Of a stretch of DNA of 64,000 bases, positions 1-22,965 are shown in pieces; position 1 is the first letter of the stretch; each line of letters opens with the position of its first letter. Origin of the DNA: Sabellastarte sp. h YS-2021. Taxonomy: Eukaryota > Annelida > Polychaeta > Sabellida > Sabellidae. The translations under genes were made by a program, and so were the position numbers. Location of the stretch: positions 12,066,496-12,130,495 of the forward strand of contig OZ024936.1 in the NCBI GenBank assembly GCA_964017235.1. Reading direction: 5' to 3'. Under the pieces are notes generated by a model. It ran no database searches. It had not been told where the DNA came from and worked only from the letters and a program-made list of their open reading frames with translations.

Positions 1-49
1 ATATTGTATAGACTCAGACTGGACCACTCTATCCATTGGTGGAAAAAAA
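1..49 (+). repeat. Partial monomer at left window edge
   Basis: These are the last 49 bases of a monomer (ATATTGTATAGACTC to the A7 tract). The array therefore continues to the left of the window, and this unit cannot be assigned to type A or B because its cassette lies outside. Confidence 0.95.
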
Positions 50-628
50 TTGGTGTCCCTCGGAACGACCAAAATTTGCGTACTCGATGGTAAGGCATCT
101 ACACATGTACGACGAAATCCCCATTTAAAATCAATGGGAAATACTGTTTCTGCTCATATCTACGAAATTAAGGTCTTTAGACCCTACCCTGTTATATTGT
201 ATAGACTCAGACTGGACCACTCTATCAATTGGTGGAAAAAAATTGGTGTCCCTCGGAACGACCAAAATTGGCGTACTCAATGGTAAGGCATCTACACATG
301 TACGACGAAATCCCCATTTAAAATCAATGGGAAATACTGTTTCTGCTCATATCTACGAAATTAAGGTCTTTAGACCCTACCCTGTTATATTGTATAGACT
401 CAGACTGGACCACTCTATCAATTGGTGGAAAAAAATTGGTGTCCCTCGGAACGACCAAAATTGGCGTACTCAATGGTAAGGCATCTACACATGTACGACG
501 AAATCCCCATTTAAAATCAATGGGAAATACTGTTTCTGCTCATATCTACGAAATTAAGGTCTTTAGACCCTACCCTGTTATATTGTATAGACTCAGACTG
601 GACCACTCTATCCATTGGTGGAAAAAAA

Positions 629-651
629 TTGGTGTCCCTCGGAACGACCAA
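629..651 (+). repeat. Interrupted dyad TTGGT...ACCAA
   Basis: TTGGT and ACCAA, 13 bases apart, are reverse complements, and between them TCC/GGA flank a three-base loop. Together they could form an imperfect hairpin (5 bp, bulge, 3 bp) at the monomer anchor. The two-base variant GTCGATCGG (units at 31858 and 34785) and the TTGATG, TTGGGG and TTGGCG variants fall in or beside its left arm. Function unknown; arms this short occur readily by chance. Confidence 0.45.
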
Positions 652-676
652 AATTGGCGTACTCGATGGTAAGGCA

Positions 677-693
677 TCTACACATGTACGACG
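677..693 (+). other. A cassette (17 bp) of the reference A monomer
   Basis: TCTACACATGTACGACG lies between the shared flanks GGTAAGGCA and AAATCCCC. It contains the palindrome ACATGT and two of the monomer's seven CpG sites. It is the only stretch that separates A from B units consistently. Read on the minus strand together with the shared AAA it gives a weak resemblance to the CENP-B box (see findings). A protein-binding role is not shown by the sequence. Confidence 0.85.
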
Positions 694-698
694 AAATC

Positions 699-717
699 CC
701 CATTTAAAATCAATGGG
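699..717 (+). repeat. Short inverted repeat CCCATT-7 nt-AATGGG
   Basis: A perfect 6-bp dyad with a seven-base AT-rich loop (TAAAATC) occurs just after the A/B cassette in nearly every monomer. Eight units carry AATGGGG, which extends the stem to 7 bp. Ten units at 31.9-46.2 kb carry AGTGGG, which in RNA would still pair through a G-U wobble. It may be a cruciform or RNA hairpin, or simply conserved by homogenisation along with the rest of the unit. Confidence 0.7.
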
Positions 718-807
718 AAATACTGTTTCTGCTCATATCTACGAAATTAAGGTCTTTAGACCCTACCCTGTTATATTGTATAGACTCAGACTGGACCACT
801 CTATCCA

Positions 808-827
808 TTGGTGGAAAAAAATTGGTG
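808..827 (+). repeat. Monomer junction: TTGGTG, G, A7, TTGGTG
   Basis: A 6-bp direct repeat TTGGTG flanks the A7 tract, so the end of one unit and the start of the next share sequence. Most small length changes of the array sit here: GGA8 (units starting 1988, 3742, 7048, 8014, 8787, 13444, 20625), GGA6 (31079), and GA7 with one base lost (52387, 54332, 55682, 57619, 58969, 63656). Many other units have GA8 by a G-to-A change without a length change. The A-tract is a plausible nucleosome-disfavouring linker, which is inference. Confidence 0.75.
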
Positions 828-1022
828 TCCCTCGGAACGACCAAAATTGGCGTACTCGATGGTAAGGCACCTGTACTAGTGTATATGCATGGCAAAATCC
901 CCATTTAAAATCAATGGGAAATACTGTTTCTGCTCATATCTACGAAATTAAGGTCTTTAGACCCTACCCTGTTATATTGTATAGACTCAGACTGGACCAC
1001 TCTATCCATTGGTGGAAAAAAA
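822..1022 (+). repeat. Reference type B monomer (201 bp)
   Basis: Identical in plan to type A except that a 25-bp segment replaces the 17-bp A cassette. There are 63 complete B units, starting at 822, 2375, 2576, 4129, 4330, 4724, 8787, 9568, 10348, 14217, 14997, 18864, 19065, 19266, 21398, 22178, 22765, 29133, 29334, 31271, 32051, 33024, 33997, 34391, 34978, 35951, 36345, 37125, 37519, 38106, 38886, 39087, 39481, 40647, 42006, 43172, 43373, 44346, 44933, 45134, 45528, 46887, 47088, 47482, 47683, 48077, 48471, 48865, 49066, 49460, 50240, 50634, 51028, 52579, 52973, 56260, 59547, 59941, 60335, 61115, 61895, 62096 and 62490. The cassette is almost invariant; the only change I saw is ACTAATG for ACTAGTG in the unit at 50240. 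Eight B units also carry CCCTATTT for CCCCATTT, a variant I did not see in A units. Confidence 0.95.
870..894 (+). other. B cassette (25 bp) of the reference B monomer
   Basis: The segment begins CCTGTACTAGTG and ends TATGCATGGCA, replacing the A cassette at the same place. It contains the palindromes ACTAGT and ATGCAT and no CpG, so B units have five CpG sites instead of seven. It aligns poorly with the A cassette, so it looks like a replacement or an old divergent allele and not a simple 8-bp insertion. Origin unknown. Confidence 0.85.
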
Positions 1023-2776
1023 TTGGTGTCCCTCGGAACGACCAAAATTTGCGTACTCGATGGTAAGGCATCTACACATGTACGACGAAATCCCCATTTA
1101 AAATCAATGGGAAATACTGTTTCTGCTCATATCTACGAAATTAAGGTCTTTAGACCCTACCCTGTTATATTGTATAGACTCAGACTGGACCACTCTATCA
1201 ATTGGTGGAAAAAAATTGGTGTCCCTCGGAACGACCAAAATTGGCGTACTCAATGGTAAGGCATCTACACATGTACGACGAAATCCCCATTTAAAATCAA
1301 TGGGAAATACTGTTTCTGCTCATATCTACGAAATTAAGGTCTTTAGACCCTACCCTGTTATATTGTATAGACTCAGACTGGACCACTCTATCAATTGGTG
1401 GAAAAAAATTGGTGTCCCTCGGAACGACCAAAATTGGCGTACTCAATGGTAAGGCATCTACACATGTACGACGAAATCCCCATTTAAAATCAATGGGAAA
1501 TACTGTTTCTGCTCATATCTACGAAATTAAGGTCTTTAGACCCTACCCTGTTATATTGTATAGACTCAGACTGGACCACTCTATCCATTGGTGGAAAAAA
1601 ATTGGTGTCCCTCGGAACGACCAAAATTGGCGTACTCGATGGTAAGGCATCTACACATGTACGACGAAATCCCCATTTAAAATCAATGGGAAATACTGTT
1701 TCTGCTCATATCTACGAAATTAAGGTCTTTAGACCCTACCCTGTTGTATTGTATAGACTCAGACTGGACCACTCTATCCATTGGTGGAAAAAAATTGGTG
1801 TCCCTCGGAACGACCAAAATTGGAGTACTCGATGGTAAGGCATCTACACATGTACGACGAAATCCACATTTAAAATCAATGGGAAATACTGTTTCTGCTC
1901 ATATCTACGAAATTAAGGTCTTTAGACCCTACCCTGTTATATTGTATAGACTCAGACTGGACCACTCTATCCATTGGTGGAAAAAAATTGGTGTCCCTCG
2001 AAACGACCAAAATTGGCGTACTCGATGGTAAGGCATCTACACATGTACGACGAAATCCCCATTTAAAATCAATGGGAAATACTGTTTCTGCTCATATCTA
2101 CGAAATTAAGGTCTTTAGACCCTACCCTGTTGTATTGTATAGACTCAGACTGGACCACTCTATCCATTGGTGGAAAAAAAATTGGTGTCCCTCGGAACGA
2201 CCAAAATTGGCGTACTCGATGGTAAGGCATCTACACATGTACGACGAAATCCCCATTTAAAATCAATGGGGAATACTGTTTCTGCTCATATCTACGAAAT
2301 TAAGGTCTTTAGACCCTACCCTGTTATATTGTATAGACTCAGACTGGACCACTCTATCCATTGGTGGAAAAAAATTGGTGTCCCTCGGAACGACCAAAAT
2401 TGGCGTACTCGATGATAAGGCACCTGTACTAGTGTATATGCATGGCAAAATCCCTATTTAAAATCAATGGGAAATACTGTTTCTGCTCATATCTACGAAA
2501 TTAAGGTCTTTAGACCCTACCCTGTTATATTGTATAGACTCAGACTGGACCACTCTATCCATTGGTGGAAAAAAATTGGTGTCCCTCGGAACGACCAAAA
2601 TTGGCGTACTCGATGGTAAGGCACCTGTACTAGTGTATATGCATGGCAAAATCCCCATTTAAAATCAATGGGAAATACTGTTTCTGCTCATATCTACGAA
2701 ATTAAGGTCTTTAGACCCTACCCTGTTATATTGTATAGACTCAGACTGGACCACTCTATCAATTGGTGGAAAAAAA
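1023..2776 (+). repeat. 9-monomer higher-order repeat, copy 1 (1,754 bp)
   Basis: Nine units (1023, 1216, 1409, 1602, 1795, 1988, 2182, 2375 B, 2576 B). Markers in order: ATTTGCG; CTCAATGG twice; GTTGTATT at 1602; GGAGTAC with TCCACATT at 1795; GTTGTATT with an A8 tract at 1988; AATGGGG at 2182; CCCTATTT in the first B. The same order and the same total length follow at 2777-4530. Copy-specific changes include CCTCGAAACG near 1996 and CGATGATAAGG near 2411. Confidence 0.85.
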
Positions 2777-4530
2777 TTGGTGTCCCTCGGAACGACCAAA
2801 ATTGGCGTACTCAATGGTAAGGCATCTACACATGTACGACGAAATCCCCATTTAAAATCAATGGGAAATACTGTTTCTGCTCATATCTACGAAATTAAGG
2901 TCTTTAGACCCTACCCTGTTATATTGTATAGACTCAGACTGGACCACTCTATCAATTGGTGGAAAAAAATTGGTGTCCCTCGGAACGACCAAAATTGGCG
3001 TACTCAATGGTAAGGCATCTACACATGTACGACGAAATCCCCATTTAAAATCAATGGGAAATACTGTTTCTGCTCATATCTACGAAATTAAGGTCTTTAG
3101 ACCCTACCCTGTTATATTGTATAGACTCAGACTGGACCACTCTATCCATTGGTGGAAAAAAATTGGTGTCCCTCGGAACGACCAAAATTGGCGTACTCAA
3201 TGGTAAGGCATCTACACATGTACGACGAAATCCCCATTTAAAATCAATGGGAAATACTGTTTCTGCTCATATCTACGAAATTAAGGTCTTTAGACCCTAC
3301 CCTGTTATATTGTATAGACTCAGACTGGACCACTCTATCCATTGGTGGAAAAAAATTGGTGTCCCTCGGAACGACCAAAATTGGCGTACTCGATGGTAAG
3401 GCATCTACACATGTACGACGAAATCCCCATTTAAAATCAATGGGAAATACTGTTTCTGCTCATATCTACGAAATTAAGGTCTTTAGACCCTACCCTGTTG
3501 TATTGTATAGACTCAGACTGGACCACTCTATCCATTGGTGGAAAAAAATTGGTGTCCCTCGGAACGACCAAAATTGGAGTACTCGATGGTAAGGCATCTA
3601 CACATGTACGACGAAATCCACATTTAAAATCAATGGGAAATACTGTTTCTGCTCATATCTACGAAATTAAGGTCTTTAGACCCTACCCTGTTATATTGTA
3701 TAGACTCAGACTGGACCACTCTATCCATTGGTGGAAAAAAATTGGTGTCCCTCGGAACGACCAAAATTGGCGTACTCGATGGTAAGGCATCTACACATGT
3801 ACGACGAAATCCCCATTTAAAATCAATGGGAAATACTGTTTCTGCTCATATCTACGAAATTAAGGTCTTTAGACCCTACCCTGTTGTATTGTATAGACTC
3901 AGACTGGACCACTCTATCCATTGGTGGAAAAAAAATTGGTGTCCCTCGGAACGACCAAAATTGGCGTACTCGATGGTAAGGCATCTACACATGTACGACG
4001 AAATCCCCATTTAAAATCAATGGGGAATACTGTTTCTGCTCATATCTACGAAATTAAGGTCTTTAGACCCTACCCTGTTATATTGTATAGACTCAGACTG
4101 GACCACTCTATCCATTGGTGGAAAAAAATTGGTGTCCCTCGGAACGACCAAAATTGGCGTACTCGATGGTAAGGCACCTGTACTAGTGTATATGCATGGC
4201 AAAATCCCTATTTAAAATCAATGGGAAATACTGTTTCTGCTCATATCTACGAAATTAAGGTCTTTAGACCCTACCCTGTTATATTGTATAGACTCAGACT
4301 GGACCACTCTATCCATTGGTGGAAAAAAATTGGTGTCCCTCGGAACGACCAAAATTGGCGTACTCGATGGTAAGGCACCTGTACTAGTGTATATGCATGG
4401 CAAAATCCCCATTTAAAATCAATGGGAAATACTGTTTCTGCTCATATCTACGAAATTAAGGTCTTTAGACCCTACCCTGTTATATTGTATAGACTCAGAC
4501 TGGACCACTCTATCCATTGGTGGAAAAAAA
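2777..4530 (+). repeat. 9-monomer higher-order repeat, copy 2 (1,754 bp)
   Basis: Units 2777, 2970, 3163, 3356, 3549, 3742, 3936, 4129 B and 4330 B match copy 1 one for one, including the GTTGTATT, GGAGTAC, A8 and AATGGGG units and the two closing B units. The first unit has GGCG and CTCAATGG where copy 1 has TTGCG and CTCGATGG, and the second ends TCCATTGG instead of TCAATTGG. Tandem duplication by unequal exchange is the simple explanation. Confidence 0.85.
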
Positions 4531-7241
4531 TTGGTGTCCCTCGGAACGACCAAAATTTGCGTACTCGATGGTAAGGCATCTACACATGTACGACGAAATC
4601 CCCATTTAAAATCAATGGGAAATACTGTTTCTGCTCATATCTACGAAATTAAGGTCTTTAGACCCTACCCTGTTATATTGTATAGACTCAGACTGGACCA
4701 CTCTATCCATTGGTGGAAAAAAATTGGTGTCCCTCGGAACGACCAAAATTGGCGTACTCAATGGTAAGGCACCTGTACTAGTGTATATGCATGGCAAAAT
4801 CCCTATTTAAAATCAATGGGAAATACTGATTCTGCTCATATCTACGAAATTAAGGTCTTTAGAACCTACCCTGTTATATTGTATAGACTCAGACTGGACC
4901 ACTCTATCCATTGGTGGAAAAAAATTGGTGTCCCTCGGAACGACCAAAATTGGCGTACTCGATGGTAAGGCATCTACACATGTACGACGAAATCCCCATT
5001 TAAAATCAATGGGAAATACTGTTTCTGCTCATATCTACGAAATTAAGGTCTTTAGACCCTACCCTGTTATATTGTATAGACTCAGACTGGACCACTCTAT
5101 CAATTGGTGGAAAAAAATTGGTGTCCCTCGGAACGACAAAAATTGGCGTACTCAATGGTAAGGCATCTACACATGTACGACGAAATCCCCATTTAAAATC
5201 AATGGGAAATACTGTTTCTGCTCATATCTACGAAATTAAGGTCTTTAGACCCTACCCTGTTATATTGTATAGACTCAGACTGGACCACTCTATCCATTGG
5301 TGGAAAAAAATTGGTGTCCCTCGGAACGACCAAAATTGGCGTACTCGATGGTAAGGCATCTACACATGTACGACGAAATCCCCATTTAAAATCAATGGGA
5401 AATACTGTTTCTGCTCATATCTACGAAATTAAGGTCTTTAGACCCTACCCTGTTATATTGTATAGACTCAGACTGGACCACTCTATCCATTGGTGGAAAA
5501 AAATTGGTGTCCCTCGGAACGACCAAAATTGGCGTACTCGATGGTAAGGCATCTACACATGTACGACGAAATCCCCATTTAAAATCAATGGGAAATACTG
5601 TTTCTGCTCATATCTACGAAATTAAGGTCTTTAGACCCTACCCTGTTGTATTGTATAGACTCACACTGGACCACTCTATCCATTGGTGGAAAAAAATTGG
5701 TGTCCCTCGGAACGACCAAAATTGGCGTACTCGATGGTAAGGCATCTACACATGTACGACGAAATCCCCATTTAAAATCAATGGGAAATACTGTTTTTGC
5801 TCATATCTACGAAATTAAGGTCTTTAGACCCTACCCTGTTATATTGTATAGACTCAGACTGGACCACTCTATCAATTGGTGGAAAAAAATTGGTGTCCCT
5901 CGGAACGACCAAAATTGGCATACTCAATGGTAAGGCATCTACACATGTACGACGAAATCCCCATTTAAAATCAATGGGAAATACTGTTTCTGCTCATATC
6001 TACGAAATTAAGGTCTTTAGACCCTACCCTGTTATATTGTATAGACTCAGACTGGACCACTCTATCCATTGGTGGAAAAAAATTGGTGTCCCTCGGAACG
6101 ACCAAAATTGGCGTACTCGATGGTAAGGCATCTACACATGTACGACGAAATCCCCATTTAAAATCAATGGGAAATACTGTTTCTGCTCATATCTACGAAA
6201 TTAAGGTCTTTAGACCCTACCCTGTTATATTGTATAGACTCAGACTGGACCACTCTATCCATTGGTGGAAAAAAATTGGTGTCCCTCGGAACGACCAAAA
6301 TTGGCGTACTCGATGGTAAGGCATCTACACATGTACGACGAAATCCACATTTAAAATCAATGGGAAATACTGTTTTTGCTCATATCTACGAAATTAAGGT
6401 CTTTAGACCCTACCCTGTTATATTGTATAGACTCAGACTGGACCACTCTATCAATTGGTGGAAAAAAATTGGTGTCCCTCGGAATGACCAAAATTGGCAT
6501 ACTCGATGGTAAGGCATCTACACATGTACGACGAAATCCCCATTTAAAATCAATGGGAAATACTGTTTCTGCTCATATCTACGAAATTAAGGTCTTTAGA
6601 CCCTACCCTGTTATATTGTATAGACTCAGACTGGACCACTCTATCCATTGGTGGAAAAAAATTGGTGTCCCTCGGAACGACCAAAATTGGCGTACTCGAT
6701 GGTAAGGCATCTACACATGTACGACGAAATCCCCATTTAAAATCAATGGGAAATACTGTTTCTGCTCATATCTACGAAATTAAGGTCTTTAGACCCTACC
6801 CTGTTGTATTGTATAGACTCAGACTGGACCACTCTATCCATTGGTGGAAAAAAATTGGTGTCCCTCGGAACGACCAAAATTGGAGTACTCGATGGTAAGG
6901 CATCTACACATGTACGACGAAATCCACATTTAAAATCAATGGGAAATACTGTTTCTGCTCATATCTACGAAATTAAGGTCTTTAGACCCTACCCTGTTAT
7001 ATTGTATAGACTCAGACTGGACCACTCTATCCATTGGTGGAAAAAAATTGGTGTCCCTCGGAACGACCAAAATTGGCGTACTCGATGGTAAGGCATCTAC
7101 ACATGTACGACAAAATCCCCATTTAAAATCAATGGGAAATACTGTTTCTGCTCATATCTACGAAATTAAGGTCTTTAGACCCTACCCTGTTGTATTGTAT
7201 AGACTCAGACTGGACCACTCTATCCATTGGTGGAAAAAAAA
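4531..7241 (+). repeat. Irregular block of 14 monomers, one B
   Basis: Units 4531 (ATTTGCG), 4724 (B, CCCTATTT), then twelve A units to 7048. It looks like a decayed or rearranged relative of the 9-mer: the run 6662, 6855, 7048 repeats the GTTGTATT, GGAGTAC, GTTGTATT-plus-A8 order. Local variants include GTTTTTGCTC (5697 and 6276), TGGCATAC (5890 and 6469), AGAACC (4724), ACGACAAAAA-type loss of a C near 5138 and AATGACC (6485). No fixed internal period is visible. Confidence 0.7.
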
Positions 7242-10200
7242 TTGGTGTCCCTCGGAACGACCAAAATTGGCGTACTCGATGGTAAGGCATCTACACATGT
7301 ACGACGAAATCCCCATTTAAAATCAATGGGGAATACTGTTTATGCTCATATCTACGAAATTAAGGTCTTTAGACCCTACCCTGTTATATTGTATAGACTC
7401 AGACTGGACCACTCTATCCATTGGTGGAAAAAAATTGGTGTCCCTCGGAACGACCAAAATTGGCGTACTCGATGGTAAGGCATCTACACATGTACGACGA
7501 AATCCCCATTTAAAATCAATGGGAAATACTGTTTCTGTTCATATCTACGAAATTAAGGTCTTTAGACCCTACCCTGTTATATTGTATAGACTCAGACTGG
7601 ACCACTCTATCCATTGGTGAAAAAAAATTGGTGTCCCTCGGAACGACCAAAATTGGCGTACTCGATGGTAAGGCATCTACACATGTACGACGAAATCCCC
7701 ATTTAAAATCAATGGGAAATACTGTTTCTGCTCATATCTACGAAATTAAGGTCTTTAGACCCTACCCTGTTATATTGTATAGACTCAGACTGGACCACTC
7801 TATCCATTGGTGGAAAAAAATTGGTGTCCCTCGGAACGACCAAAATTGGAGTACTCGATGGTAAGGCATCTACACATGTACGACGAAATCCACATTTAAA
7901 ATCAATGGGAAATACTGTTTCTGCTCATATCTACGAAATTAAGGTCTTTAGACCCTACCCTGTTATATTGTATAGACTCAGACTGGACCACTCTATCCAT
8001 TGGTGGAAAAAAATTGGTGTCCCTCGGAACGACCAAAATTGGCGTACTCGATGGTAAGGCATCTACACATGTACGACAAAATCCCCATTTAAAATCAATG
8101 GGAAATACTGTTTCTGCTCATATCTACGAAATTAAGGTCTTTAGACCCTACCCTGTTGTATTGTATAGACTCAGACTGGACCACTCTATCCATTGGTGGA
8201 AAAAAAATTGGTGTCCCTCGGAACGACCAAAATTGGCGTACTCGATGGTAAGGCATCTACACATGTACGACGAAATCCCCATTTAAAATCAATGGGGAAT
8301 ACTGTTTATGCTCATATCTACGAAATTAAGGTCTTTAGACCCTACCCTGTTATATTGTATAGACTCAGACTGGACCACTCTATCCATTGGTGGAAAAAAA
8401 TTGGTGTCCCTCGGAACGACCAAAATTGGCGTACTCGATGGTAAGGCATCTACACATGTACGACGAAATCCCCATTTAAAATCAATGGGAAATACTGTTT
8501 CTGTTCATATCTACGAAATTAAGGTCTTTAGACCCTACCCTGTTATATTGTATAGACTCAGACTGGACCACTCTATCCATTGGTGAAAAAAAATTGGTGT
8601 CCCTCGGAACGACCAAAATTGGCGTACTCGATGGTAAGGCATCTACACATGTACGACGAAATCCCCATTTAAAATCAATGGGAAATACTGTTTCTGCTCA
8701 TATCTACGAAATTAAGGTCTTTAGACCCTACCCTGTTATATTGTATAGACTCAGACTGGACCACTCTATCCATTGGTGGAAAAAAATTGGTGTCCCTCGG
8801 AACGACCAAAATTGGCGTACTCAATGGTAAGGCACCTGTACTAGTGTATATGCATGGCAAAATCCCCATTTAAAATCAATGGGAAATACTGTTTCTGCTC
8901 ATATCTACGAAATTAAGGTCTTTAGACCCTACCCTGTTATATGGTATAGACTCAGACTGGACCACTCTATCCATTGGTGGAAAAAAAATTGGTGTCCCTC
9001 GGAACGACCAAAATTGGCGTACTCGATGGTAAGGCATCTACACATGTACGACGAAATCCCCATTTAAAATCAATGGGGAATACTGTTTATGCTCATATCT
9101 ACGAAATTAAGGTCTTTAGACCCTACCCTGTTATATTGTATAGACTCAGACTGGACCACTCTATCCATTGGTGGAAAAAAATTGGTGTCCCTCGGAACGA
9201 CCAAAATTGGCGTACTCGATGGTAAGGCATCTACACATGTACGACGAAATCCCCATTTAAAATCAATGGGAAATACTGTTTCTGTTCATATCTACGAAAT
9301 TAAGGTCTTTAGACCCTACCCTGTTATATTGTATAGACTCAGACTGGACCACTCTATCCATTGGTGAAAAAAAATTGGTGTCCCTCGGAACGACCAAAAT
9401 TGGCGTACTCGATGGTAAGGCATCTACACATGTACGACGAAATCCCCATTTAAAATCAATGGGAAATACTGTTTCTGCTCATATCTACGAAATTAAGGTC
9501 TTTAGACCCTACCCTGTTATATTGTATAGACTCAGACTGGACCACTCTATCCATTGGTGGAAAAAAATTGGTGTCCCTCGGAACGACCAAAATTGGCGTA
9601 CTCAATGGTAAGGCACCTGTACTAGTGTATATGCATGGCAAAATCCCCATTTAAAATCAATGGGAAATACTGTTTCTGCTCATATCTACGAAATTAAGGT
9701 CTTTAGACCCTACCCTGTTATATTGTATAGACACAGACTGGACCACTCTATCCATTGGTGGAAAAAAATTGGTGTCCCTCGGAACGACCAAAATTGGCGT
9801 ACTCGATGGTAAGGCATCTACACATGTACGACGAAATCCCCATTTAAAATCAATGGGAAATACTGTTTCTGTTCATATCTACGAAATTAAGGTCTTCAGA
9901 CCCTACCCTGTTATATTGTATAGACTCAGACTGGACCACTCTATCCATTGGTGAAAAAAAATTGGTGTCCCTCGGAACGACCAAAATTGGCGTACTCGAT
10001 GGTAAGGCATCTACACATGTACGACGAAATCCCCATTTAAAATCAATGGGAAATACTGTTTCTGCTCATATCTACGAAATTAAGGTCTTTAGACCCTACC
10101 CTGTTATATTGTATAGACTCAGACTGGACCACTCTATCCATTGGTGGAAAAAAATTGGTGTCCCTCGGAACGACCAAAATTGGCGTACTCGATGGTAAGG

Positions 10201-12671
10201 CATCTACACATGTACGACGAAATCCCCATTTAAAATCAATGGGAAATACTGTTTCTGTTCATATCTACGAAATTAAGGTCTTTAGACCCTACCCTGTTAT
10301 ATTGTATAGACTCAGACTGGACCACTCTATCCATTGGTGGAAAAAAATTGGTGTCCCTCGGAACGACCAAAATTGGCGTACTCAATGGTAAGGCACCTGT
10401 ACTAGTGTATATGCATGGCAAAATCCCCATTTAAAATCAATGGGAAATACTGTTTCTGCTCATATCTACGAAATTAAGGTCTTTAGACCCTACCCTGTTA
10501 TATTGTATAGACACAGACTGGACCACTCTATCCATTGGTGGAAAAAAATTGGTGTCCCTCGGAACGACCAAAATTGGCGTACTCGATGGTAAGGCATCTA
10601 CACATGTACGACGAAATCCCCATTTAAAATCAATGGGAAATACTGTTTCTGTTCATATCTACGAAATTAAGGTCTTTAGACCCTACCCTGTTATATTGTA
10701 TAGACTCAGACTGGACCACTCTATCCATTGGTGAAAAAAAATTGGTGTCCCTCGGAACGACCAAAATTGGCGTACTCGATGGTAAGGCATCTACACATGT
10801 ACGACGAAATCCCCATTTAAAATCAATGGGAAATACTGTTTCTGCTCATATCTACGAAATTAAGGTCTTTAGACCCTACCCTGTTATATTGTATAGACTC
10901 AGACTGGACCACTCTATCCATTGGTGGAAAAAAATTGGTGTCCCTCGGAACGACCAAAATTGGCGTACTCGATGGTAAGGCATCTACACATGTACGACGA
11001 AATCCCCATTTAAAATCAATGGGAAATACTGTTTCTGCTCATATCTACGAAATTAAGGTCTTTAGACCCTACCCTGTTATATTGTATAGACTCAGACTGG
11101 ACCACTCTATCCATTGGTGGAAAAAAATTGGTGTCCCTCGGAACGACCAAAATTGGCGTACTCGATGGTAAGGCATCTACACATGTACGACGAAATCCCC
11201 ATTTAAAATCAATGGGAAATACTGTTTTTGCTCATATCTATGAAATTAAGGTCTTTAGACCCTACCCTGTTATATTGTATAGACTCAGACTGGACCACTC
11301 TATCCATTGGTGGAAAAAAATTGGTGTCCCTCGGAACGACCAAAATTGGCGTACTCGATGGTAAGGCATCTACACATGTACGACGAAATCCCCATTTAAA
11401 ATCAAAGGGAAATACTGTTTCTGCTCATATCTACGAAATTAAGGTCTTTAGACCCTACCCTGTTATATTGTATAGACTCAGACTGGACCACTCTATCCAT
11501 TGGTGGAAAAAAATTGGTGTCCCTCGGAACGACCAAAATTGGCGTACTCGACGGTAAGGCATCTACACATGTACGACGAAATCCCCATTTAAAATCAATG
11601 GGAAATACTGTTTCTGCTCATATCTACGAAATTAAGGTCTTTAGACCCTACCCTGTTGTATTGTATAGACTCAGACTGGACCACTCTATCCATTGGTGGA
11701 AAAAAATTGGTGTCCCTCGGAACGACCAAAATTGGCGTACTCGATGGTAAGGCACCTACACATGTACGACGAAATCCCCATTTAAAATCAATGGGAAATA
11801 CTGTTTCTGCTCATATCTACGAAATTAAGGTCTTTAGACCCTACCCTGTTATATTGTATAGACTCAGACTGGACCACTCTATCCATTGGTGGAAAAAAAT
11901 TGGTGTCCCTCGGAACGACCAAAATTGGCGTACTCGATGGTAAGGCATCTACACATGTACGACGAAATCCCCATTTAAAATCAATGGGAAATACTGTTTC
12001 TGCTCATATTTACGAAATTAAGGTCTTTAGACCCTACCCTGTTTTATTGTATAGACTCAGACTGGACCACTCTATCCATTGGTGAAAAAAAATTGGTGTC
12101 CCTCGGAACGACCAAAATTGGCGTACTCGATGGTAAGGCATCTACACATGTACGACGAAATCCCCATTTAAAATCAATGGGAAATACTGTTTCTGCTCAT
12201 ATCTACGAAATTAAGGTCTTTAGACCCTACCCTGTTATATTGTATAGACTCAGACTGGACCACTCTATCCATTGGTGAAAAAAAATTGGTGTCGCTCGGA
12301 ACGACCAAAATTGGCGTACTCGATGGTAAGGCATCTACACATGTACGACGAAATCCCCATTTAAAATCAATGGGAAATACTGTTTCTGCTCATATCTACG
12401 AAATTAAGGTCTTTAGACCCTACCCTGTTATATTGTATAGACTCAGACTGGACCACTCTATCCATTGGTGGAAAAAAATTGGTGTCCCTCGGAACGACCA
12501 AAATTGGCGTACTCGATGGTAAGGCATCTACACATGTACGACGAAATCCCCATTTAAAATCAATGGGAAATACTGTTTCTGCTCATATCTACGAAATTAA
12601 GGTCTTTAGACCCTACCCTGTTATATTGTATAGACACAGACTGGACCACTCTATCCATTGGTGGAAAAAAA
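7242..12671 (+). repeat. Long superunit, copy 1 (28 monomers, 5,430 bp)
   Basis: This starts with the AATGGGG/TTTATGCTC unit at 7242 and ends with the TAGACACA unit at 12479. Ordered markers include CTGTTCAT with TTGGTGA (7435), ACGACAAAAT with A8 (8014), three consecutive tetramers (8208, 8989, 9769), CTTCAGA (9769), TTTTTGCTC with TATGAAAT (11128), ATCAAAGGG (11321), GCACCTACAC (11707), CATATTTAC with GTTTTATT (11900) and GTCGCTCGG (12286). The same order recurs in the next 6,000 bases, including rare single-copy changes, so these are tandem copies of one long unit. Confidence 0.85.
8208..10548 (+). repeat. Tetramer HOR (3 A + 1 B), three tandem copies
   Basis: Units 8208-8988 (781 bp), 8989-9768 (780 bp) and 9769-10548 (780 bp) each contain three A units followed or closed by one B. 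The first two start with AATGGGG/TTTATGCTC, then a CTGTTCAT/TTGGTGA unit, a plain unit and a B. The third starts with CTGTTCAT. The first B (8787) is 202 bp because of an A8 tract and has ATATGGTATAG. The same tetramer recurs at 13638-15197 and 20819-22378. Confidence 0.8.
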
Positions 12672-13637
12672 TTGGTGTCCCTCGGAACGACCAAAATTGG
12701 CGTACTCGATGGTAAGGCATCTACACATGTACGACGAAATCCCCATTTAAAATCAATGGGGAATACTGTTTATGCTCATATCTACGAAATTAAGGTCTTT
12801 AGACCCTACCCTGTTATATTGTATAGACTCAGACTGGACCACTCTATCCATTGGTGGAAAAAAATTGGTGTCCCTCGGAACGACCAAAATTGGCGTACTC
12901 GATGGTAAGGCATCTACACATGTACGACGAAATCCCCATTTAAAATCAATGGGAAATACTGTTTCTGTTCATATCTACGAAATTAAGGTCTTTAGACCCT
13001 ACCCTGTTATATTGTATAGACTCAGACTGGACCACTCTATCCATTGGTGAAAAAAAATTGGTGTCCCTCGGAACGACCAAAATTGGCGTACTCGATGGTA
13101 AGGCATCTACACATGTACGACGAAATCCCCATTTAAAATCAATGGGAAATACTGTTTCTGCTCATATCTACGAAATTAAGGTCTTTAGACCCTACCCTGT
13201 TATATTGTATAGACTCAGACTGGACCACTCTATCCATTGGTGGAAAAAAATTGGTGTCCCTCGGAACGACCAAAATTGGAGTACTCGATGGTAAGGCATC
13301 TACACATGTACGACGAAATCCACATTTAAAATCAATGGGAAATACTGTTTCTGCTCATATCTACGAAATTAAGGTCTTTAGACCCTACCCTGTTATATTG
13401 TATAGACTCAGACTGGACCACTCTATCCATTGGTGGAAAAAAATTGGTGTCCCTCGGAACGACCAAAATTGGCGTACTCGATGGTAAGGCATCTACACAT
13501 GTACGACAAAATCCCCATTTAAAATCAATGGGAAATACTGTTTCTGCTCATATCTACGAAATTAAGGTCTTTAGACCCTACCCTGTTGTATTGTATAGAC
13601 TCAGACTGGACCACTCTATCCATTGGTGGAAAAAAAA

Positions 13638-15197
13638 TTGGTGTCCCTCGGAACGACCAAAATTGGCGTACTCGATGGTAAGGCATCTACACATGTACGA
13701 TGAAATCCCCATTTAAAATCAATGGGGAATACTGTTTATGCTCATATCTACGAAATTAAGGTCTTTAGACCCTACCCTGTTATATTGTATAGACTCAGAC
13801 TGGACCACTCTATCCATTGGTGGAAAAAAATTGGTGTCCCTCGGAACGACCAAAATTGGCGTACTCGATGGTAAGGCATCTACACATGTACGACGAAATC
13901 CCCATTTAAAATCAATGGGAAATACTGTTTCTGTTCATATCTACGAAATTAAGGTCTTTAGACCCTACCCTGTTATATTGTATAGACTCAGACTGGACCA
14001 CTCTATCCATTGGTGAAAAAAAATTGGTGTCCCTCGGAACGACCAAAATTGGCGTACTCGATGGTAAGGCATCTACACATGTACGACGAAATCCCCATTT
14101 AAAATCAATGGGAAATACTGTTTCTGCTCATATCTACGAAATTAAGGTCTTTAGACCCTACCCTGTTATATTGTATAGACTCAGACTGGACCACTCTATC
14201 CATTGGTGGAAAAAAATTGGTGTCCCTCGGAACGATCAAAATTGGCGTACTCAATGGTAAGGCACCTGTACTAGTGTATATGCATGGCAAAATCCCCATT
14301 TAAAATCAATGGGAAATACTGTTTCTGCTCATATCTACGAAATTAAGGTCTTTAGACCCTACCCTGTTATATTGTATAGACACAGACTGGACCACTCTAT
14401 CCATTGGTGGAAAAAAATTGGTGTCCCTCGGAACGACCAAAATTGGCGTACTCGATGGTAAGGCATCTACACATGTACGACGAAATCCCCATTTAAAATC
14501 AATGGGAAATACTGTTTCTGTTCATATCTACGAAATTAAGGTCTTCAGACCCTACCCTGTTATATTGTATAGACTCAGACTGGACCACTCTATCCATTGG
14601 TGAAAAAAAATTGGTGTCCCTCGGAACGACCAAAATTGGCGTACTCGATGGTAAGGCATCTACACATGTACGACGAAATCCCCATTTAAAATCAATGGGA
14701 AATACTGTTTCTGCTCATATCTACGAAATTAAGGTCTTTAGACCCTACCCTGTTATATTGTATAGACTCAGACTGGACCACTCTATCCATTGGTGGAAAA
14801 AAATTGGTGTCCCTCGGAACGACCAAAATTGGCGTACTCGATGGTAAGGCATCTACACATGTACGACGAAATCCCCATTTAAAATCAATGGGAAATACTG
14901 TTTCTGTTCATATCTACGAAATTAAGGTCTTTAGACCCTACCCTGTTATATTGTATAGACTCAGACTGGACCACTCTATCCATTGGTGGAAAAAAATTGG
15001 TGTCCCTCGGAACGACCAAAATTGGCGTACTCAATGGTAAGGCACCTGTACTAGTGTATATGCATGGCAAAATCCCCATTTAAAATCAATGGGAAATACT
15101 GTTTCTGCTCATATCTACGAAATTAAGGTCTTTAGACCCTACCCTGTTATATTGTATAGACACAGACTGGACCACTCTATCCATTGGTGGAAAAAAA
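13638..15197 (+). repeat. Tetramer HOR (3 A + 1 B), two tandem copies
   Basis: Two 780-bp tetramers, 13638-14417 and 14418-15197, sit inside superunit copy 2. The second carries CTTCAG near 14,545, matching the same rare change near 9,896 in copy 1, which proves the correspondence. Copy 1 has one more tetramer in this place. Confidence 0.8.
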
Positions 15198-16934
15198 TTG
15201 GTGTCCCTCGGAACGACCAAAATTGGCGTACTCGATGGTAAGGCATCTACACATGTACGACGAAATCCCCATTTAAAATCAATGGGAAATACTGTTTCTG
15301 TTCATATCTACGAAATTAAGGTCTTTAGACCCTACCCTGTTATATTGTATAGACTCAGACTGGACCACTCTATCCATTGGTGAAAAAAAATTGGTGTCCC
15401 TCGGAACGACCAAAATTGGCGTACTCGATGGTAAGGCATCTACACATGTACGACGAAATCCCCATTTAAAATCAATGGGAAATACTGTTTCTGCTCATAT
15501 CTACGAAATTAAGGTCTTTAGACCCTACCCTGTTATATTGTATAGACTCAGACTGGACCACTCTATCCATTGGTGGAAAAAAATTGGTGTCCCTCGGAAC
15601 GACCAAAATTGGCGTACTCGATGGTAAGGCATCTACACATGTACGACGAAATCCCCATTTAAAATCAATGGGAAATACTGTTTCTGCTCACATCTACGAA
15701 ATTAAGGTCTTTAGACCCTACCCTGTTATATTGTATAGACTCAGACTGGACCACTCTATCCATTGGTGAAAAAAAATTGGTGTCCCTCGGAACGACCAAA
15801 ATTGGCGTACTCGATGGTAAGGCATCTACACATGTACGACGAAATCCCCATTTAAAATCAATGGGAAATACTGTTTCTGCTCATATCTACGAAATTAAGG
15901 TCTTTAGACCCTACCCTGTTATATTGTATAGACTCAGACTGGACCACTCTATCCATTGGTGGAAAAAAATTGGTGTCCCTCGGAACGACCAAAATTGGCG
16001 TACTCGATGGTAAGGCATCTACACATGTACGACGAAATCCCCATTTAAAATCAATGGGAAATACTGTTTCTGCTCATATCTACGAAATTAAGGTCTTTAG
16101 ACCCTACCCTGTTATATTGTATAGACTCAGACTGGACCACTCTATCCATTGGTGGAAAAAAATTGGTGTCCCTCGGAACGACCAAAATTGGCGTACTCGA
16201 TGGTAAGGCATCTACACATGTACGACGAAATCCCCATTTAAAATCAATGGGAAATACTGTTTCTGTTCATATCTACGAAATTAAGGTCTTTAGACCCTAC
16301 CCTGTTATATTGTATAGACTCAGACTGGACCACTCTATCCATTGGTGAAAAAAAATTGGTGTCCCTCGGAACGACCAAAATTGGCGTACTCGATGGTAAG
16401 GCATCTACACATGTACGACGAAATCCCCATTTAAAATCAATGGGAAATACTGTTTCTGCTCATATCTACGAAATTAAGGTCTTTAGACCCTACCCTGTTA
16501 TATTGTATAGACTCAGACTGGACCACTCTATCCATTGGTGGAAAAAAATTGGTGTCCCTCGGAACGACCAAAATTGGCGTACTCGATGGTAAGGCATCTA
16601 CACATGTACGACGAAATCCCCATTTAAAATCAATGGGAAATACTGTTTCTGCTCATATCTACGAAATTAAGGTCTTTAGACCCTACCCTGTTATATTGTA
16701 TAGACTCAGACTGGACCACTCTATCCATTGGTGGAAAAAAATTGGTGTCCCTCGGAACGACCAAAATTGGCGTACTCGATGGTAAGGCATCTACACATGT
16801 ACGACGAAATCCCCATTTAAAATCAATGGGAAATACTGTTTTTGCTCATATCTATGAAATTAAGGTCTTTAGACCCTACCCTGTTATATTGTATAGACTC
16901 AGACTGGACCACTCTATCCATTGGTGGAAAAAAA

Positions 16935-17706
16935 TTGGTGTCCCTCGGAACGACCAAAATTGGCGTACTCGATGGTAAGGCATCTACACATGTACGACGA
17001 AATCCCCATTTAAAATCAAAGGGAAATACTGTTTCTGCTCATATCTACGAAATTAAGGTCTTTAGACCCTACCCTGTTATATTGTATAGACTCAGACTGG
17101 ACCACTCTATCCATTGGTGGAAAAAAATTGGTGTCCCTCGGAACGACCAAAATTGGCGTACTCGACGGTAAGGCATCTACACATGTACGACGAAATCCCC
17201 ATTTAAAATCAATGGGAAATACTGTTTCTGCTCATATCTACGAAATTAAGGTCTTTAGACCCTACCCTGTTGTATTGTATAGACTCAGACTGGACCACTC
17301 TATCCATTGGTGGAAAAAAATTGGTGTCCCTCGGAACGACCAAAATTGGCGTACTCGATGGTAAGGCATCTACACATGTACGACGAAATCCCCATTTAAA
17401 ATCAAAGGGAAATACTGTTTCTGCTCATATCTACGAAATTAAGGTCTTTAGACCCTACCCTGTTATATTGTATAGACTCAGACTGGACCACTCTATCCAT
17501 TGGTGGAAAAAAATTGGTGTCCCTCGGAACGACCAAAATTGGCGTACTCGACGGTAAGGCATCTACACATGTACGACGAAATCCCCATTTAAAATCAATG
17601 GGAAATACTGTTTCTGCTCATATCTACGAAATTAAGGTCTTTAGACCCTACCCTGTTGTATTGTATAGACTCAGACTGGACCACTCTATCCATTGGTGGA
17701 AAAAAA
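16935..17706 (+). repeat. Recent dimer duplication (2 x 386 bp)
   Basis: 16935-17320 and 17321-17706 each consist of an ATCAAAGGG unit ending CTCGACGG followed by a GTTGTATT unit. Superunit copy 1 has this pair once (11321-11706). The extra pair accounts exactly for the jump of the inter-copy offset from 5,614 to 6,000 bp. Confidence 0.85.
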
Positions 17707-18671
17707 TTGGTGTCCCTCGGAACGACCAAAATTGGCGTACTCGATGGTAAGGCACCTACACATGTACGACGAAATCCCCATTTAAAATCAATGGGAAATA
17801 CTGTTTCTGCTCATATCTACGAAATTAAGGTCTTTAGACCCTACCCTGTTATATTGTATAGACTCAGACTGGACCACTCTATCCATTGGTGGAAAAAAAT
17901 TGGTGTCCCTCGGAACGACCAAAATTGGCGTACTCGATGGTAAGGCATCTACACATGTACGACGAAATCCCCATTTAAAATCAATGGGAAATACTGTTTC
18001 TGCTCATATTTACGAAATTAAGGTCTTTAGACCCTACCCTGTTTTATTGTATAGACTCAGACTGGACCACTCTATCCATTGGTGAAAAAAAATTGGTGTC
18101 CCTCGGAACGACCAAAATTGGCGTACTCGATGGTAAGGCATCTACACATGTACGACGAAATCCCCATTTAAAATCAATGGGAAATACTGTTTCTGCTCAT
18201 ATCTACGAAATTAAGGTCTTTAGACCCTACCCTGTTATATTGTATAGACTCAGACTGGACCACTCTATCCATTGGTGAAAAAAAATTGGTGTCGCTCGGA
18301 ACGACCAAAATTGGCGTACTCGATGGTAAGGCATCTACACATGTACGACGAAATCCCCATTTAAAATCAATGGGAAATACTGTTTCTGCTCATATCTACG
18401 AAATTAAGGTCTTTAGACCCTACCCTGTTATATTGTATAGACTCAGACTGGACCACTCTATCCATTGGTGGAAAAAAATTGGTGTCCCTCGGAACGACCA
18501 AAATTGGCGTACTCGATGGTAAGGCATCTACACATGTACGACGAAATCCCCATTTAAAATCAATGGGAAATACTGTTTCTCCTCATATCTACGAAATTAA
18601 GGTCTTTAGACCCTACCCTGTTATATTGTATAGACACAGACTGGACCACTCTATCCATTGGTGGAAAAAAA

Positions 18672-19466
18672 TTGGTGTCCCTCGGAACGACCAAAATTGG
18701 CGTACTCGATGGTAAGGCATCTACACATGTACGACGAAATCCCCATTTAAAATCAATGGGAAATACTGTTTCTGCTCATATCTACGAAATTAAGGTCTTT
18801 AGACCCTACCCTGTTATATTGTATAGACTCAGACTGGACCACTCTATCCATGGTGGAAAAAAATTGGTGTCCCTCGGAACGACCAAAATTGGCGTACTCG
18901 ATGGTAAGGCACCTGTACTAGTGTATATGCATGGCAAAATCCCCATTTAAAATCAATGGGAAATACTGTTTCTGCTCATATCTACGAAATTAAGGTCTTT
19001 AGACCCTACCCTGTTATATTGTATAGACTCAGACTGGACCACTCTATCCATTGGTGGAAAAAAATTGGTGTCCCTCGGAACGACCAAAATTGGCGTACTC
19101 GATGGTAAGGCACCTGTACTAGTGTATATGCATGGCAAAATCCCTATTTAAAATCAATGGGAAATACTGTTTCTGCTCATATCTACGAAATTAAGGTCTT
19201 TAGACCCTACCCTGTTATATTGTATAGACTCAGACTGGACCACTCTATCCATTGGTGGAAAAAAATTGGTGTCCCTCGGAACGACCAAAATTGGCGTACT
19301 CGATGGTAAGGCACCTGTACTAGTGTATATGCATGGCAAAATCCCCATTTAAAATCAATGGGAAATACTGTTTCTGCTCATATCTACGAAATTAAGGTCT
19401 TTAGACCCTACCCTGTTATATTGTATAGACTCAGACTGGACCACTCTATCCATTGGTGGAAAAAAA
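18672..19466 (+). repeat. 192-bp CCATGG unit followed by three B monomers
   Basis: The unit at 18672 has lost one T (CCATGG for CCATTGG) and is 192 bp. It is followed by B units at 18864, 19065 (CCCTATTT) and 19266, the only run of three B units I found. The same one-base deletion precedes two B units at 28941-29534, so the two junctions share descent. The block separates the long superunit from the chimeric block. Confidence 0.85.
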
Positions 19467-22400
19467 TTGGTGTCCCTCGGAACGACCAAAATTTGCGTAC
19501 TCGATGGTAAGGCATCTACACATGTACGACGAAATCCCCATTTAAAATCAATGGGAAATACTGTTTCTGCTCATATCTACGAAATTAAGGTCTTTAGACC
19601 CTACCCTGTTATATTGTATAGACTCAGACTGGACCACTCTATCAATTGGTGGAAAAAAATTGGTGTCCCTCGGAACGACCAAAATTGGCGTACTCAATGG
19701 TAAGGCATCTACACATGTACGACGAAATCCCCATTCAAAATCAATGGGAAATACTGTTTCTGCTCATATCTACGAAATTAAGGTCTTTAGACCCTACCCT
19801 GTTATATTGTATAGACTCAGACTGGACCACTCTATCAATTGGTGGAAAAAAATTGGTGTCCCTCGGAACGACCAAAATTGGCGTACTCAATGGTAAGGCA
19901 TCTACACATGTACGACAAAATCCCCATTTAAAATCAATGGGAAATACTGTTTCTGCTCATATCTACGAAATTAAGGTCTTTAGACCCTACCCTGTTATAT
20001 TGTATAGACTCAGACTGGACCACTCTATCCATTGGTGGAAAAAAATTGGTGTCCCTCGGAACGACCAAAATTGGCGTACTCGATGGTAAGGCATCTACAC
20101 ATGTACGACGAAATCCCCATTTAAAATCAATGGGAAATACTGTTTCTGCTCATATCTACGAAATTAAGGTCTTTAGACCCTACCCTGTTATATTGTATAG
20201 ACTCAGACTGGACCACTCTATCCATTGGTGGAAAAAAATTGGTGTCCCTCGGAACGACCAAAATTGGCGTACTCGATGGTAAGGCATCTACACATGTACG
20301 ACGAAATCCCCATTTAAAATCAATGGGAAATACTGTTTCTGCTCATATCTACGAAATTAAGGTCTTTAGACCCTACCCTGTTGTATTGTATAGACTCAGA
20401 CTGGACCACTCTATCCATTGGTGGAAAAAAATTGGTGTCCCTCGGAACGACCAAAATTGGAGTACTCGATGGTAAGGCATCTACACATGTACGACGAAAT
20501 CCACATTTAAAATCAATGGGAAATACTGTTTCTGCTCATATCTACGAAATTAAGGTCTTTAGACCCTACCCTGTTATATTGTATAGACTCAGACTGGACC
20601 ACTCTATCCATTGGTGGAAAAAAATTGGTGTCCCTCGGAACGACCAAAATTGGCGTACTCGATGGTAAGGCATCTACACATGTACGACGAAATCCCCATT
20701 TAAAATCAATGGGAAATACTGTTTCTGCTCATATCTACGAAATTAAGGTCTTTAGACCCTACCCTGTTGTATTGTATAGACTCAGACTGGACCACTCTAT
20801 CCATTGGTGGAAAAAAAATTGGTGTCCCTCGGAACGACCAAAATTGGCGTACTCGATGGTAAGGCATCTACACATGTACGACGAAATCCCCATTTAAAAT
20901 CAATGGGGAATACTGTTTATGCTCATATCTACAAAATTAAGGTCTTTAGACCCTACCCTGTTATATTGTATAGACTCAGACTGGACCACTCTATCCATTG
21001 GTGGAAAAAAATTGGTGTCCCTCGGAACGACCAAAATTGGCGTACTCGATGGTAAGGCATCTACACATGTACGACGAAATCCCCATTTAAAATCAATGGG
21101 AAATACTGTTTCTGTTCATATCTACGAAATTAAGGTCTTTAGACCCTACCCTGTTATATTGTATAGACTCAGACTGGACCACTCTATCCATTGGTGAAAA
21201 AAAATTGGTGTCCCTCGGAACGACCAAAATTGGCGTACTCGATGGTAAGGCATCTACACATGTACGACGAAATCCCCATTTAAAATCAATGGGAAATACT
21301 GTTTCTGCTCATATCTACGAAATTAAGGTCTTTAGACCCTACCCTGTTATATTGTATAGACTCAGACTGGACCACTCTATCCATTGGTGGAAAAAAATTG
21401 GTGTCCCTCGGAACGACCAAAATTGGCGTACTCAATGGTAAGGCACCTGTACTAGTGTATATGCATGGCAAAATCCCCATTTAAAATCAATGGGAAATAC
21501 TGTTTCTGCTCATATCTACGAAATTAAGGTCTTTAGACCCTACCCTGTTATATTGTATAGACACAGACTGGACCACTCTATCCATTGGTGGAAAAAAATT
21601 GGTGTCCCTCGGAACGACCAAAATTGGCGTACTCGATGGTAAGGCATCTACACATGTACGACGAAATCCCCATTTAAAATCAATGGGAAATACTGTTTCT
21701 GTTCATATCTACGAAATTAAGGTCTTTAGACCCTACCCTGTTATATTGTATAGACTCAGACTGGACCACTCTATCCATTGGTGAAAAAAAATTGGTGTCC
21801 CTCGGAACGACCAAAATTGGCGTACTCGATGGTAAGGCATCTACACATGTACGACGAAATCCCCATTTAAAATCAATGGGAAATACTGTTTCTGCTCATA
21901 TCTACGAAATTAAGGTCTTTAGACCCTACCCTGTTATATTGTATAGACTCAGACTGGACCACTCTATCCATTGGTGGAAAAAAATTGGTGTCCCTCGGAA
22001 CGACCAAAATTGGCGTACTCGATGGTAAGGCATCTACACATGTACGACGAAATCCCCATTTAAAATCAATGGGAAATACTGTTTCTGCTCATATCTACGA
22101 AATTAAGGTCTTTAGACCCTACCCTGTTATATTGTATAGACTCAGACTGGACCACTCTATCCATTGGTGGAAAAAAATTTGTGTCCCTCGGAACGACCAA
22201 AATTGGCGTACTCAATGGTAAGGCACCTGTACTAGTGTATATGCATGGCAAAATCCCCATTTAAAATCAATGGGAAATACTGTTTCTGCTCATATCTACG
22301 AAATTAAGGTCTTTAGACCCTACCCTGTTATATTGTATAGACACAGACTGGACCACTCTATCCATTGGTGGAAAAAAATTGGTGTCCCTCGGAACGACCA

Positions 22401-22965
22401 AAATTGGCGTACTCGATGGTAAGGCATCTACACATGTACGACGAAATCCCCATTTAAAATCAATGGGAAATACTGTTTCTGTTCATATCTACGAAATTAA
22501 GGTCTTTAGACCCTACCCTGTTATATTGTATAGACTCAGACTGGACCACTCTATCCATTGGTGAAAAAAAATTGGTGTCCCTCGGAACGACCAAAATTGG
22601 CGTACTCGATGGTAAGGCATCTACACATGTACGACGAAATCCCCATTTAAAATCAATGGGAAATACTGTTTCTGCTCATATCTACGAAATTAAGGTCTTT
22701 AGACCCTACCCTGTTATATTGTATAGACTCAGACTGGACCACTCTATCCATTGGTGGAAAAAAATTGGTGTCCCTCGGAACGACCAAAATTGGCGTACTC
22801 AATGGTAAGGCACCTGTACTAGTGTATATGCATGGCAAAATCCCCATTTAAAATCAATGGGAAATACTGTTTCTGCTCATATCTACGAAATTAAGGTCTT
22901 TAGACCCTACCCTGTTATATTGTATAGACTCAGACTGGACCACTCTATCCATTGGTGGAAAAAAA
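19467..22965 (+). repeat. Chimeric block: 9-mer family joined to tetramer family
   Basis: Units 19467-20818 follow the 9-mer order (ATTTGCG; CTCAATGG twice; plain; GTTGTATT; GGAGTAC with TCCACATT; GTTGTATT with A8). From 20819 the order switches to that of the tetramer family (TTTATGCTC, CTGTTCAT, plain, B; two 780-bp copies and a shortened 587-bp copy at 22379-22965). Local changes: CCATTCAAAA near 19,736 removes a recurring TAA, CTACAAAAT near 20,933, AAATTTGTG near 22,180. The join resembles that at 7,048-7,242. Confidence 0.75.

What the first reader, a model, noticed from the sequence alone, without database searches (positions are those of the whole stretch)
629..1022. Two monomer types differ by a swapped 17/25-bp cassette
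A and B units share essentially the same sequence outside one site, where a 17-bp segment is replaced by a dissimilar 25-bp segment. The B cassette is nearly invariant in 63 units, and it sits on backgrounds whose other variants (CTCAATGG, AACAACC, GGCATAC, CGATGG) also occur in A units. So the cassette appears to move by conversion or exchange. Human alpha satellite has a comparable two-state box (A box or CENP-B box) at one position, where it affects protein binding. A similar role here is untested.
Basis: partly seen in the sequence, partly recalled or inferred. Interest (0 to 1): 0.72.

Follow-up and report, generated by a model that had tools for sequence, protein, structure and literature searches.

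The report
Two-state satellite monomers, local exchange
This stretch is part of a very long tandem DNA array in an animal genome whose repeat unit comes in two forms that differ at one short site; the forms are mostly inherited with the blocks of repeats around them and now and then swap between near neighbours, which resembles known two-state repeats of mammalian centromeres.

Summary
The whole window is one satellite array: 328 full units, 265 with the 17-bp A cassette, 63 with the 25-bp B cassette. In 1,116 units sampled over 2.1 Mb the A and B consensus backbones are identical. Carriers of shared non-CpG variants do (50 against 14.8; 0 of 359 shifts reach it), so exchange is real, but local and uncommon: 0 of 119 strictly matched contexts differ in state. 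Several switches are unit chimeras or neighbour pairs, not a mobile box. In the wider sample the B cassette is no more conserved than the backbone. The multi-base deletions found start at the cassette's left edge, so it may be an indel hotspot. No CENP-B box. An ordinary higher-order satellite with a neat two-state site; protein binding and centromere role are untested.

The parts
1..64000 (+). one satellite array of 193/201-bp monomers, head to tail
   Evidence: TRF; segmentation into 328 full units
629..821 (+). A unit named in the finding (193 bp)
822..1022 (+). B unit named in the finding (201 bp)
677..693 (+). A cassette, 17 bp
   Evidence: 241 of 265 A units of the window carry it exactly
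870..894 (+). B cassette, 25 bp
   Evidence: 62 of 63 B units of the window carry it exactly
968..983 (+). segment of the monomer's own backbone that matches the first 16 bp of the B cassette at 13 of 16 positions; possible template of the B cassette
   Evidence: the score is reached by 15 of 600 base shuffles and 4 of 600 dinucleotide shuffles of the cassette; position read
26973..27157 (+). A unit with an 8-bp deletion that the alignment places at the left edge of the cassette (unit of 185 bp)
42547..42739 (+). A unit with variant T6C between neighbours A123C,A140G and A187G: A form of a unit that also exists as B between the same neighbours
44300..44500 (+). B unit with T6C between the same two neighbour haplotypes: candidate switched cassette

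Best explanation
The window lies in a satellite array that spans at least 2.1 Mb of one chromosome of an animal. The monomer has a two-state site. The B form most likely arose once, by a local rearrangement at a site prone to small indels (inferred). Both forms were spread over the array by block duplication into higher-order repeats (blocks shown). The state is normally inherited with its block; now and then short-range unequal exchange, and perhaps short gene conversion, between nearby units puts a B cassette on a backbone piece that is also found with A, or the reverse (shown statistically and in single cases; the mechanism is inferred). Backbones stay common to both forms because the array is homogenised, while the cassette keeps two states because it is one non-matching block (inferred). 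No special function of the cassette need be assumed.
For: Identical A and B consensus backbones; net A-B backbone divergence 0.08 differences per unit against within-class diversity of 2.57 and 2.65, while 7 of 17 aligned cassette columns differ in consensus against 0 of 176 backbone bases. Block inheritance: of 119 strictly matched contexts 107 are identical, 12 differ by points, 0 in state; repeated blocks such as a 22-unit block at offset 28 in L038. Local exchange: shared non-CpG variants co-locate, 50 against 14.8 (0 of 359 shifts; 33 against 11.5, 1 of 359 shifts, without G84C), CpG ones do not within 2.5 kb. Chimeras: in L047 the order G84C, A:T6C, B, A45C.. is also seen as G84C, B:T6C, A45C.., one unit fewer; neighbouring B|A pairs share G84C, or A41- with T58G. 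Hotspot: among 1,116 units the multi-base deletions are one of 8 bp (one unit) and one of 17 bp (two units of one duplicated block), both placed at column 94.
Against: Whole arms with two or more variants are never found with both states (0 of 43 left, 0 of 27 right), so exchange rests on single variants and on partial arms such as A41-,T58G; 8 of 19 shared non-CpG variants show no co-located pair. Many of the chimera cases are a few events multiplied by duplication. In the 54 ungapped matched blocks, 14 of 518 aligned unit pairs differ in state; 8 of the 14 are at block ends, 6 inside (blocks overlap), so switches may be commoner than the strict count says. The case at 42547 and 44300 keeps both neighbours and the unit number, which looks more like conversion than unequal crossing-over. 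At 5 kb the CpG class also leans to co-location (36 against 22.2, 15 of 359 shifts). A single origin of B and the hotspot rest on small numbers, and deletion placement depends on the alignment.
Confidence: 0.6

Rival explanations
1. A selected two-state protein-binding box, as in alpha satellite: the cassette is converted from unit to unit and kept in two states because one of them binds a protein.
For: Two sharply distinct states at one site on a common consensus backbone; a conversion-like case with both neighbours kept; in the window 62 of 63 B cassettes are exact; the - strand of the A cassette holds the A unit's best CENP-B-box match, 7 of 9 core bases, which the B unit lacks.
Against: In the wider sample the B cassette varies as much as the backbone; a 7-of-9 match is expected about 0.5 times per unit by chance (hand estimate, no call); state differs in 0 of 119 strict contexts; no clear periodic placement of B (lags 1 to 32: absolute z at most 2.4, 3 of 32 at 2 or more).
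Confidence: 0.14
2. Old subfamily without exchange: A and B are two separate monomer lineages, and all shared backbone variants arose twice.
For: Strong association of most variants with one state (33 of 49 non-CpG variants with n of 8 or more have at most one carrier in the other state); six of seven CpG variants shared, without co-location within 2.5 kb; 8 of 19 shared non-CpG variants without a co-located pair; no full multi-variant arm shared.
Against: Co-location of shared non-CpG variants (0 of 359 shifts), apparent chimeric units, and no consensus difference in the backbone against 7 of 17 columns in the cassette, which long separation would not leave.
Confidence: 0.1
3. The two cassettes are diverged homologues in which the purine/pyrimidine order is what matters: an alternating tract (flexible or Z-prone DNA) kept while the bases changed by transitions only.
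For: 17 of 17 purine/pyrimidine agreement with one 8-bp gap; 1 of 20,000 random 25-mers and 1 of 20,000 base shuffles reach it; each cassette holds the longest alternating tract of its unit, 12 and 13 bp.
Against: 621 of 20,000 dinucleotide shuffles of B reach the same agreement, and an alternating tract at least as long turns up in 18 (A) and 16 (B) of 1,000 unit shuffles; base identity of 10 of 17 is near what two sequences of one purine/pyrimidine pattern would share by chance (my reasoning); single-strand folds are ordinary. Noticed after seeing the sequences.
Confidence: 0.1

Closest known systems
Human alpha satellite A/B box (positions 35-51; B binds CENP-B, A reportedly pJalpha)
   Same: Two states at one short position of a monomer, both found in higher-order arrays; in rare cases box and monomer class contradict each other (passages of PMC4496801).
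   Different: There a binding protein is known for B. Here the states differ in length (17 and 25 bp), the consensus backbones of the two classes are identical, the CENP-B box is not met and no binder is known.
Mouse minor satellite (120-mer, 112-mer, 112-64-dimer; CENP-B box intact or not)
   Same: Units within one array split by presence or absence of a box, and length classes 8 bp apart exist (passages of PMC10880262).
   Different: In mouse the length classes make up separate kinds of array and separate clades; here the two lengths are mixed within one array. CENP-B box function is known in mouse, nothing is known here.
Meloidogyne satellites with a 17-bp CENP-B-box-like Box 1 and a Box 2
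   Same: Invertebrate satellites in which short boxes sit at recombination junctions (passages of PMC3694981).
   Different: There the box is conserved among divergent satellites; here the site is the part that differs in an otherwise uniform monomer.

Membership tests
Satellite DNA with higher-order repeats | head-to-tail array of near-identical monomers | tested here: met
Satellite DNA with higher-order repeats | blocks of many monomers repeated with matching variants | tested here: met
   54 matching blocks at score 18 or more, examples; B cassettes repeat at 6,253-bp spacing near C14:11.91-11.93 Mb (positions)
Alpha-satellite-like A/B-box satellite | two alternative sequences at one fixed site of the monomer | tested here: met
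   754 A, 360 B and 2 with the cassette deleted among 1,116 units
Alpha-satellite-like A/B-box satellite | one state is a CENP-B box (core TTCG....A..CGGG, recalled) | tested here: not met
   best match misses 2 of 9 core bases in the A unit and 3 of 9 in the B unit
Alpha-satellite-like A/B-box satellite | a protein binds one state | not testable with these tools
   needs pull-down or chromatin data
Alpha-satellite-like A/B-box satellite | centromeric location, CENP-A chromatin | not testable with these tools
   a megabase array near 12-14 Mb of a 99.7-Mb contig would suit a centromere but does not show one
Alpha-satellite-like A/B-box satellite | present on all or most chromosomes | tested here: inconclusive
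   the 100 places listed out of 3,626 are all on C14 (capped list); further genome searches got no answer

The most novel reading that the evidence does not exclude
The site is a live switch box outside mammals: an indel-prone, alternating purine/pyrimidine spot that keeps producing box states (-17, -8, 0 and +8 bp relative to A), of which two are maintained because they differ in binding of a centromere or heterochromatin protein, with the A:B ratio (63 of 328 B in this window, 32 of 50 in L044) tuning the array.
Probability: 0.08. Interest if true: 0.75.

Novelty: new member of a known kind. Interest (0 to 1): 0.34.

Why it matters
The array gives a clean marker, a multi-base two-state site on an otherwise uniform monomer, for measuring how satellite units exchange pieces. 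It also shows a trap: variants shared between monomer classes need not mean exchange when they lie at CpG sites. If one state proved to bind a protein, it would be a two-state centromere box in what is probably an invertebrate.

Tried and rejected
Four-gamete counts by distance from the cassette: 16 of 49 non-CpG variants, with no clear fall with distance; ordinary pairs give far fewer (0.9 to 4.2% by distance bin) but are far rarer variants, so this is not decisive. Hairpin or cruciform: four stretches fold no better than shuffles, and 629-1022 has no inverted repeat of 8 bp or more within 60 bp. CENP-B box: not met. Conservation of the B cassette: seen in the window, not in the wider sample. 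Origin of B from the monomer's own junction (13 of 16): possible, weak. Diverged relics of the monomer in seven flanking 10-kb blocks and 370 bp left of the array gap: no BLAST hit at E 1. Species: not identified; six fragments of the unit in the paper library gave 0 papers, Rfam gave 0 matches at the gathering score on eight blocks. Paper searches seen as listings only; one search gave 0 papers. Searches for a donor of the B cassette on other backbones, for the genome count of the A cassette and for COX1 got no answer, so the origin of B and the spread over other chromosomes stay open.

Full report
What is there. The window is one tandem array from end to end (TRF period 193, 329 copies). Cut at a fixed anchor it gives 328 full units, 265 with the 17-bp A cassette and 63 with the 25-bp B cassette; 253 of the 328 are 193 bp and 59 are 201 bp. 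The named coordinates hold one A unit and one B unit. The window is C14:12066496-12130495 of a genome of 1.786 Gb in 647 contigs. The exact B cassette occurs 999 times on one strand and 2,627 times on the other; the reversed control gives 0. All 13 blocks of 10 kb sampled between 11.90 and 14.01 Mb of C14 are array; the seven at 10.0, 11.0, 11.65, 11.75, 11.80, 11.85 and 15.0 Mb hold no unit by the anchor and cassette search. The array begins after a 200-N gap near 11,862,566, and its strand flips across another 200-N gap in L042, so the orientation of the second part may be a scaffolding choice. A receptor-like frame in L048 (Pfam 7tm_1, E 2.2e-21) suggests an animal; the species is not known, and 'invertebrate' is my guess from genome size and by-eye reading of the flanks.

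A wider sample. Window, tiles and blocks give 1,117 units; one holding an inserted element was left out, leaving 1,116: 754 A, 360 B and 2 with the cassette deleted. The B share runs from 63 of 328 in the window to 32 of 50 in L044. The consensus backbones of A and B are the same at every column. Seven of 17 aligned cassette columns differ in consensus, plus the 8-bp gap; these are not all strictly fixed, for instance 69 of 754 A units carry the B base at column 116 and 17 at column 120. Net A-B divergence in the backbone is 0.08 differences per unit, small against the within-class diversity of 2.57 and 2.65 but above all 500 label shuffles (maximum 0.006). So the cassette does not reflect a long separate history of two whole monomers, unless homogenisation has wiped the backbone clean since.

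Does the cassette change hands? Three of the four cited variants are CpG-to-CpA changes and the fourth is the consensus. Six of seven common CpG variants are shared, against 16 of 49 others (n of 8 or more). If sharing means exchange, A and B carriers of a variant should lie near each other; if it means repeated mutation, they need not. With B carriers shifted around the array as a control, the 19 shared non-CpG variants (two or more carriers in each state) have 50 B carriers with an A carrier within 2.5 kb against 14.8 expected, and 0 of 359 shifts reach that; the 6 CpG variants have 20 against 17.0, and 125 of 359 shifts reach that. Taken one by one, 6 of the 19 reach P below 0.05 and 8 of the 19 have no co-located pair, so repeated mutation plays a part there too. 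Other radii agree for non-CpG variants (0.5 kb: 5 of 359 shifts; 1 kb: 1; 5 and 10 kb: 0); for CpG variants 5 kb leans towards co-location (15 of 359) and 10 kb gives 46 of 359. Without G84C, 33 against 11.5 remain (1 of 359). So the cited sites are poor evidence, but exchange is real.

How it changes hands. In contexts with the same two units on each side and each side rarer than 1 in 100, 107 of 119 centres are identical, 12 differ by points and none differs in state; with a limit of 1 in 10, 1 of 128 differs, in state and backbone. With one unit on each side, 4 of 136 contexts (6 of 158 with the looser limit) differ in state, 2 of them on the same backbone. In ungapped matched blocks 14 of 518 aligned unit pairs differ in state, 8 of these at block ends. 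The clearest case in the window is the T6C unit between A123C,A140G and A187G, A at 40022 and 42547 and B at 44300. In L047 the order G84C, A:T6C, B, A45C.. is also seen as G84C, B:T6C, A45C.., one unit fewer, as a crossover inside the unit would give; and neighbouring B and A units share G84C, or A41- with T58G, left of the cassette. Among adjacent A-B pairs 15 of 480 share a non-CpG variant, all left of the cassette, but these come from three variant sets copied by duplication. A-B pairs share variants less often than same-state pairs at every lag from 1 to 12 (1.0 to 3.6% against 5.1 to 20.4%), so the state marks two lineages with a leak. Whole arms with two or more variants are never seen with both states (0 of 43 left, 0 of 27 right). 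The tree test gives 47 state changes on 282 haplotypes (200 shuffles: mean 82.6, minimum 72) and 26 on the 190 haplotypes with two or more variants (mean 54.0, minimum 43), between full agreement and none, with the reservation that the tree is near a star.

What the site is. The B cassette is no more conserved than its backbone (12 of 25 against 78 of 176 segregating sites, P 0.83), nor is the A cassette (13 of 17 against 101 of 176, P 0.20). Apart from single bases, the indels in the 1,116 units are an 8-bp deletion (one unit, in the window) and a 17-bp deletion (two units, one duplicated block), both placed by the alignment at column 94, the left edge of the cassette; the left-out unit has its insert elsewhere in the unit. 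Together with the 8-bp A/B difference this makes the edge look like an indel hotspot, on few events. Both cassettes hold the longest alternating purine/pyrimidine tract of their unit (12 and 13 bp; 18 and 16 of 1,000 shuffles reach that) and agree in purine/pyrimidine at 17 of 17 positions with one gap; 1 of 20,000 random 25-mers but 621 of 20,000 dinucleotide shuffles of B do so. The first 16 bp of B match the monomer's own junction at 13 of 16 (15 of 600 and 4 of 600 shuffles), so a copied patch is another possible origin. These are hints, tested after seeing the sequence.

Compared with what is known. Alpha satellite has a two-state A/B box at positions 35-51, and in rare cases box and monomer class contradict each other (passages of PMC4496801). 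Mouse minor satellite arrays split into units with and without a CENP-B box and have length classes 8 bp apart (passages of PMC10880262). Meloidogyne satellites have a 17-bp box at recombination junctions (passages of PMC3694981). The present array resembles these as a mixed two-state satellite, but fails the CENP-B-box test (best 7 of 9 core bases, in A; about 0.5 such matches per unit expected by chance, hand estimate) and has no known binder. I found no description of this satellite: six of its fragments gave 0 papers, which says little, since satellite sequences are seldom printed in text.

Verdict. A real, clean two-state site in an ordinary higher-order satellite array, with limited local exchange. 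Its function, if any, is open.

Noticed in passing
L036:3820-5368: One B unit is interrupted by 1,346 bp with terminal inverted repeats (CCCAGCAGGCA) and a likely 2-bp target duplication (AC): a DNA transposon-like insert in the array.
   Followed up: partly
L042:6877-7076: The array changes strand across a 200-N gap; either an inversion or a scaffold joined the wrong way round.
   Followed up: partly
L037:2772-2947 and L037:8617-8792: Two copies of a unit that has lost 17 bp at the cassette and so has neither A nor B.
   Followed up: yes
window units, backbone columns 60, 64, 65, 78, 84, 169, 170: Seven CpG transitions are among the 56 variants with 8 or more carriers, although by eye the backbone has only five CpG sites; this suggests germline methylation of the array (not tested formally).
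   Followed up: partly
L031:2516-3056: A short tandem repeat that reads as an open frame on both strands (repeated STPAKRVVW on -, DQTTRLAGV on +).
   Followed up: no
L032, L033, L049: Long frames that look, by eye only, like retroelement genes.
   Followed up: no
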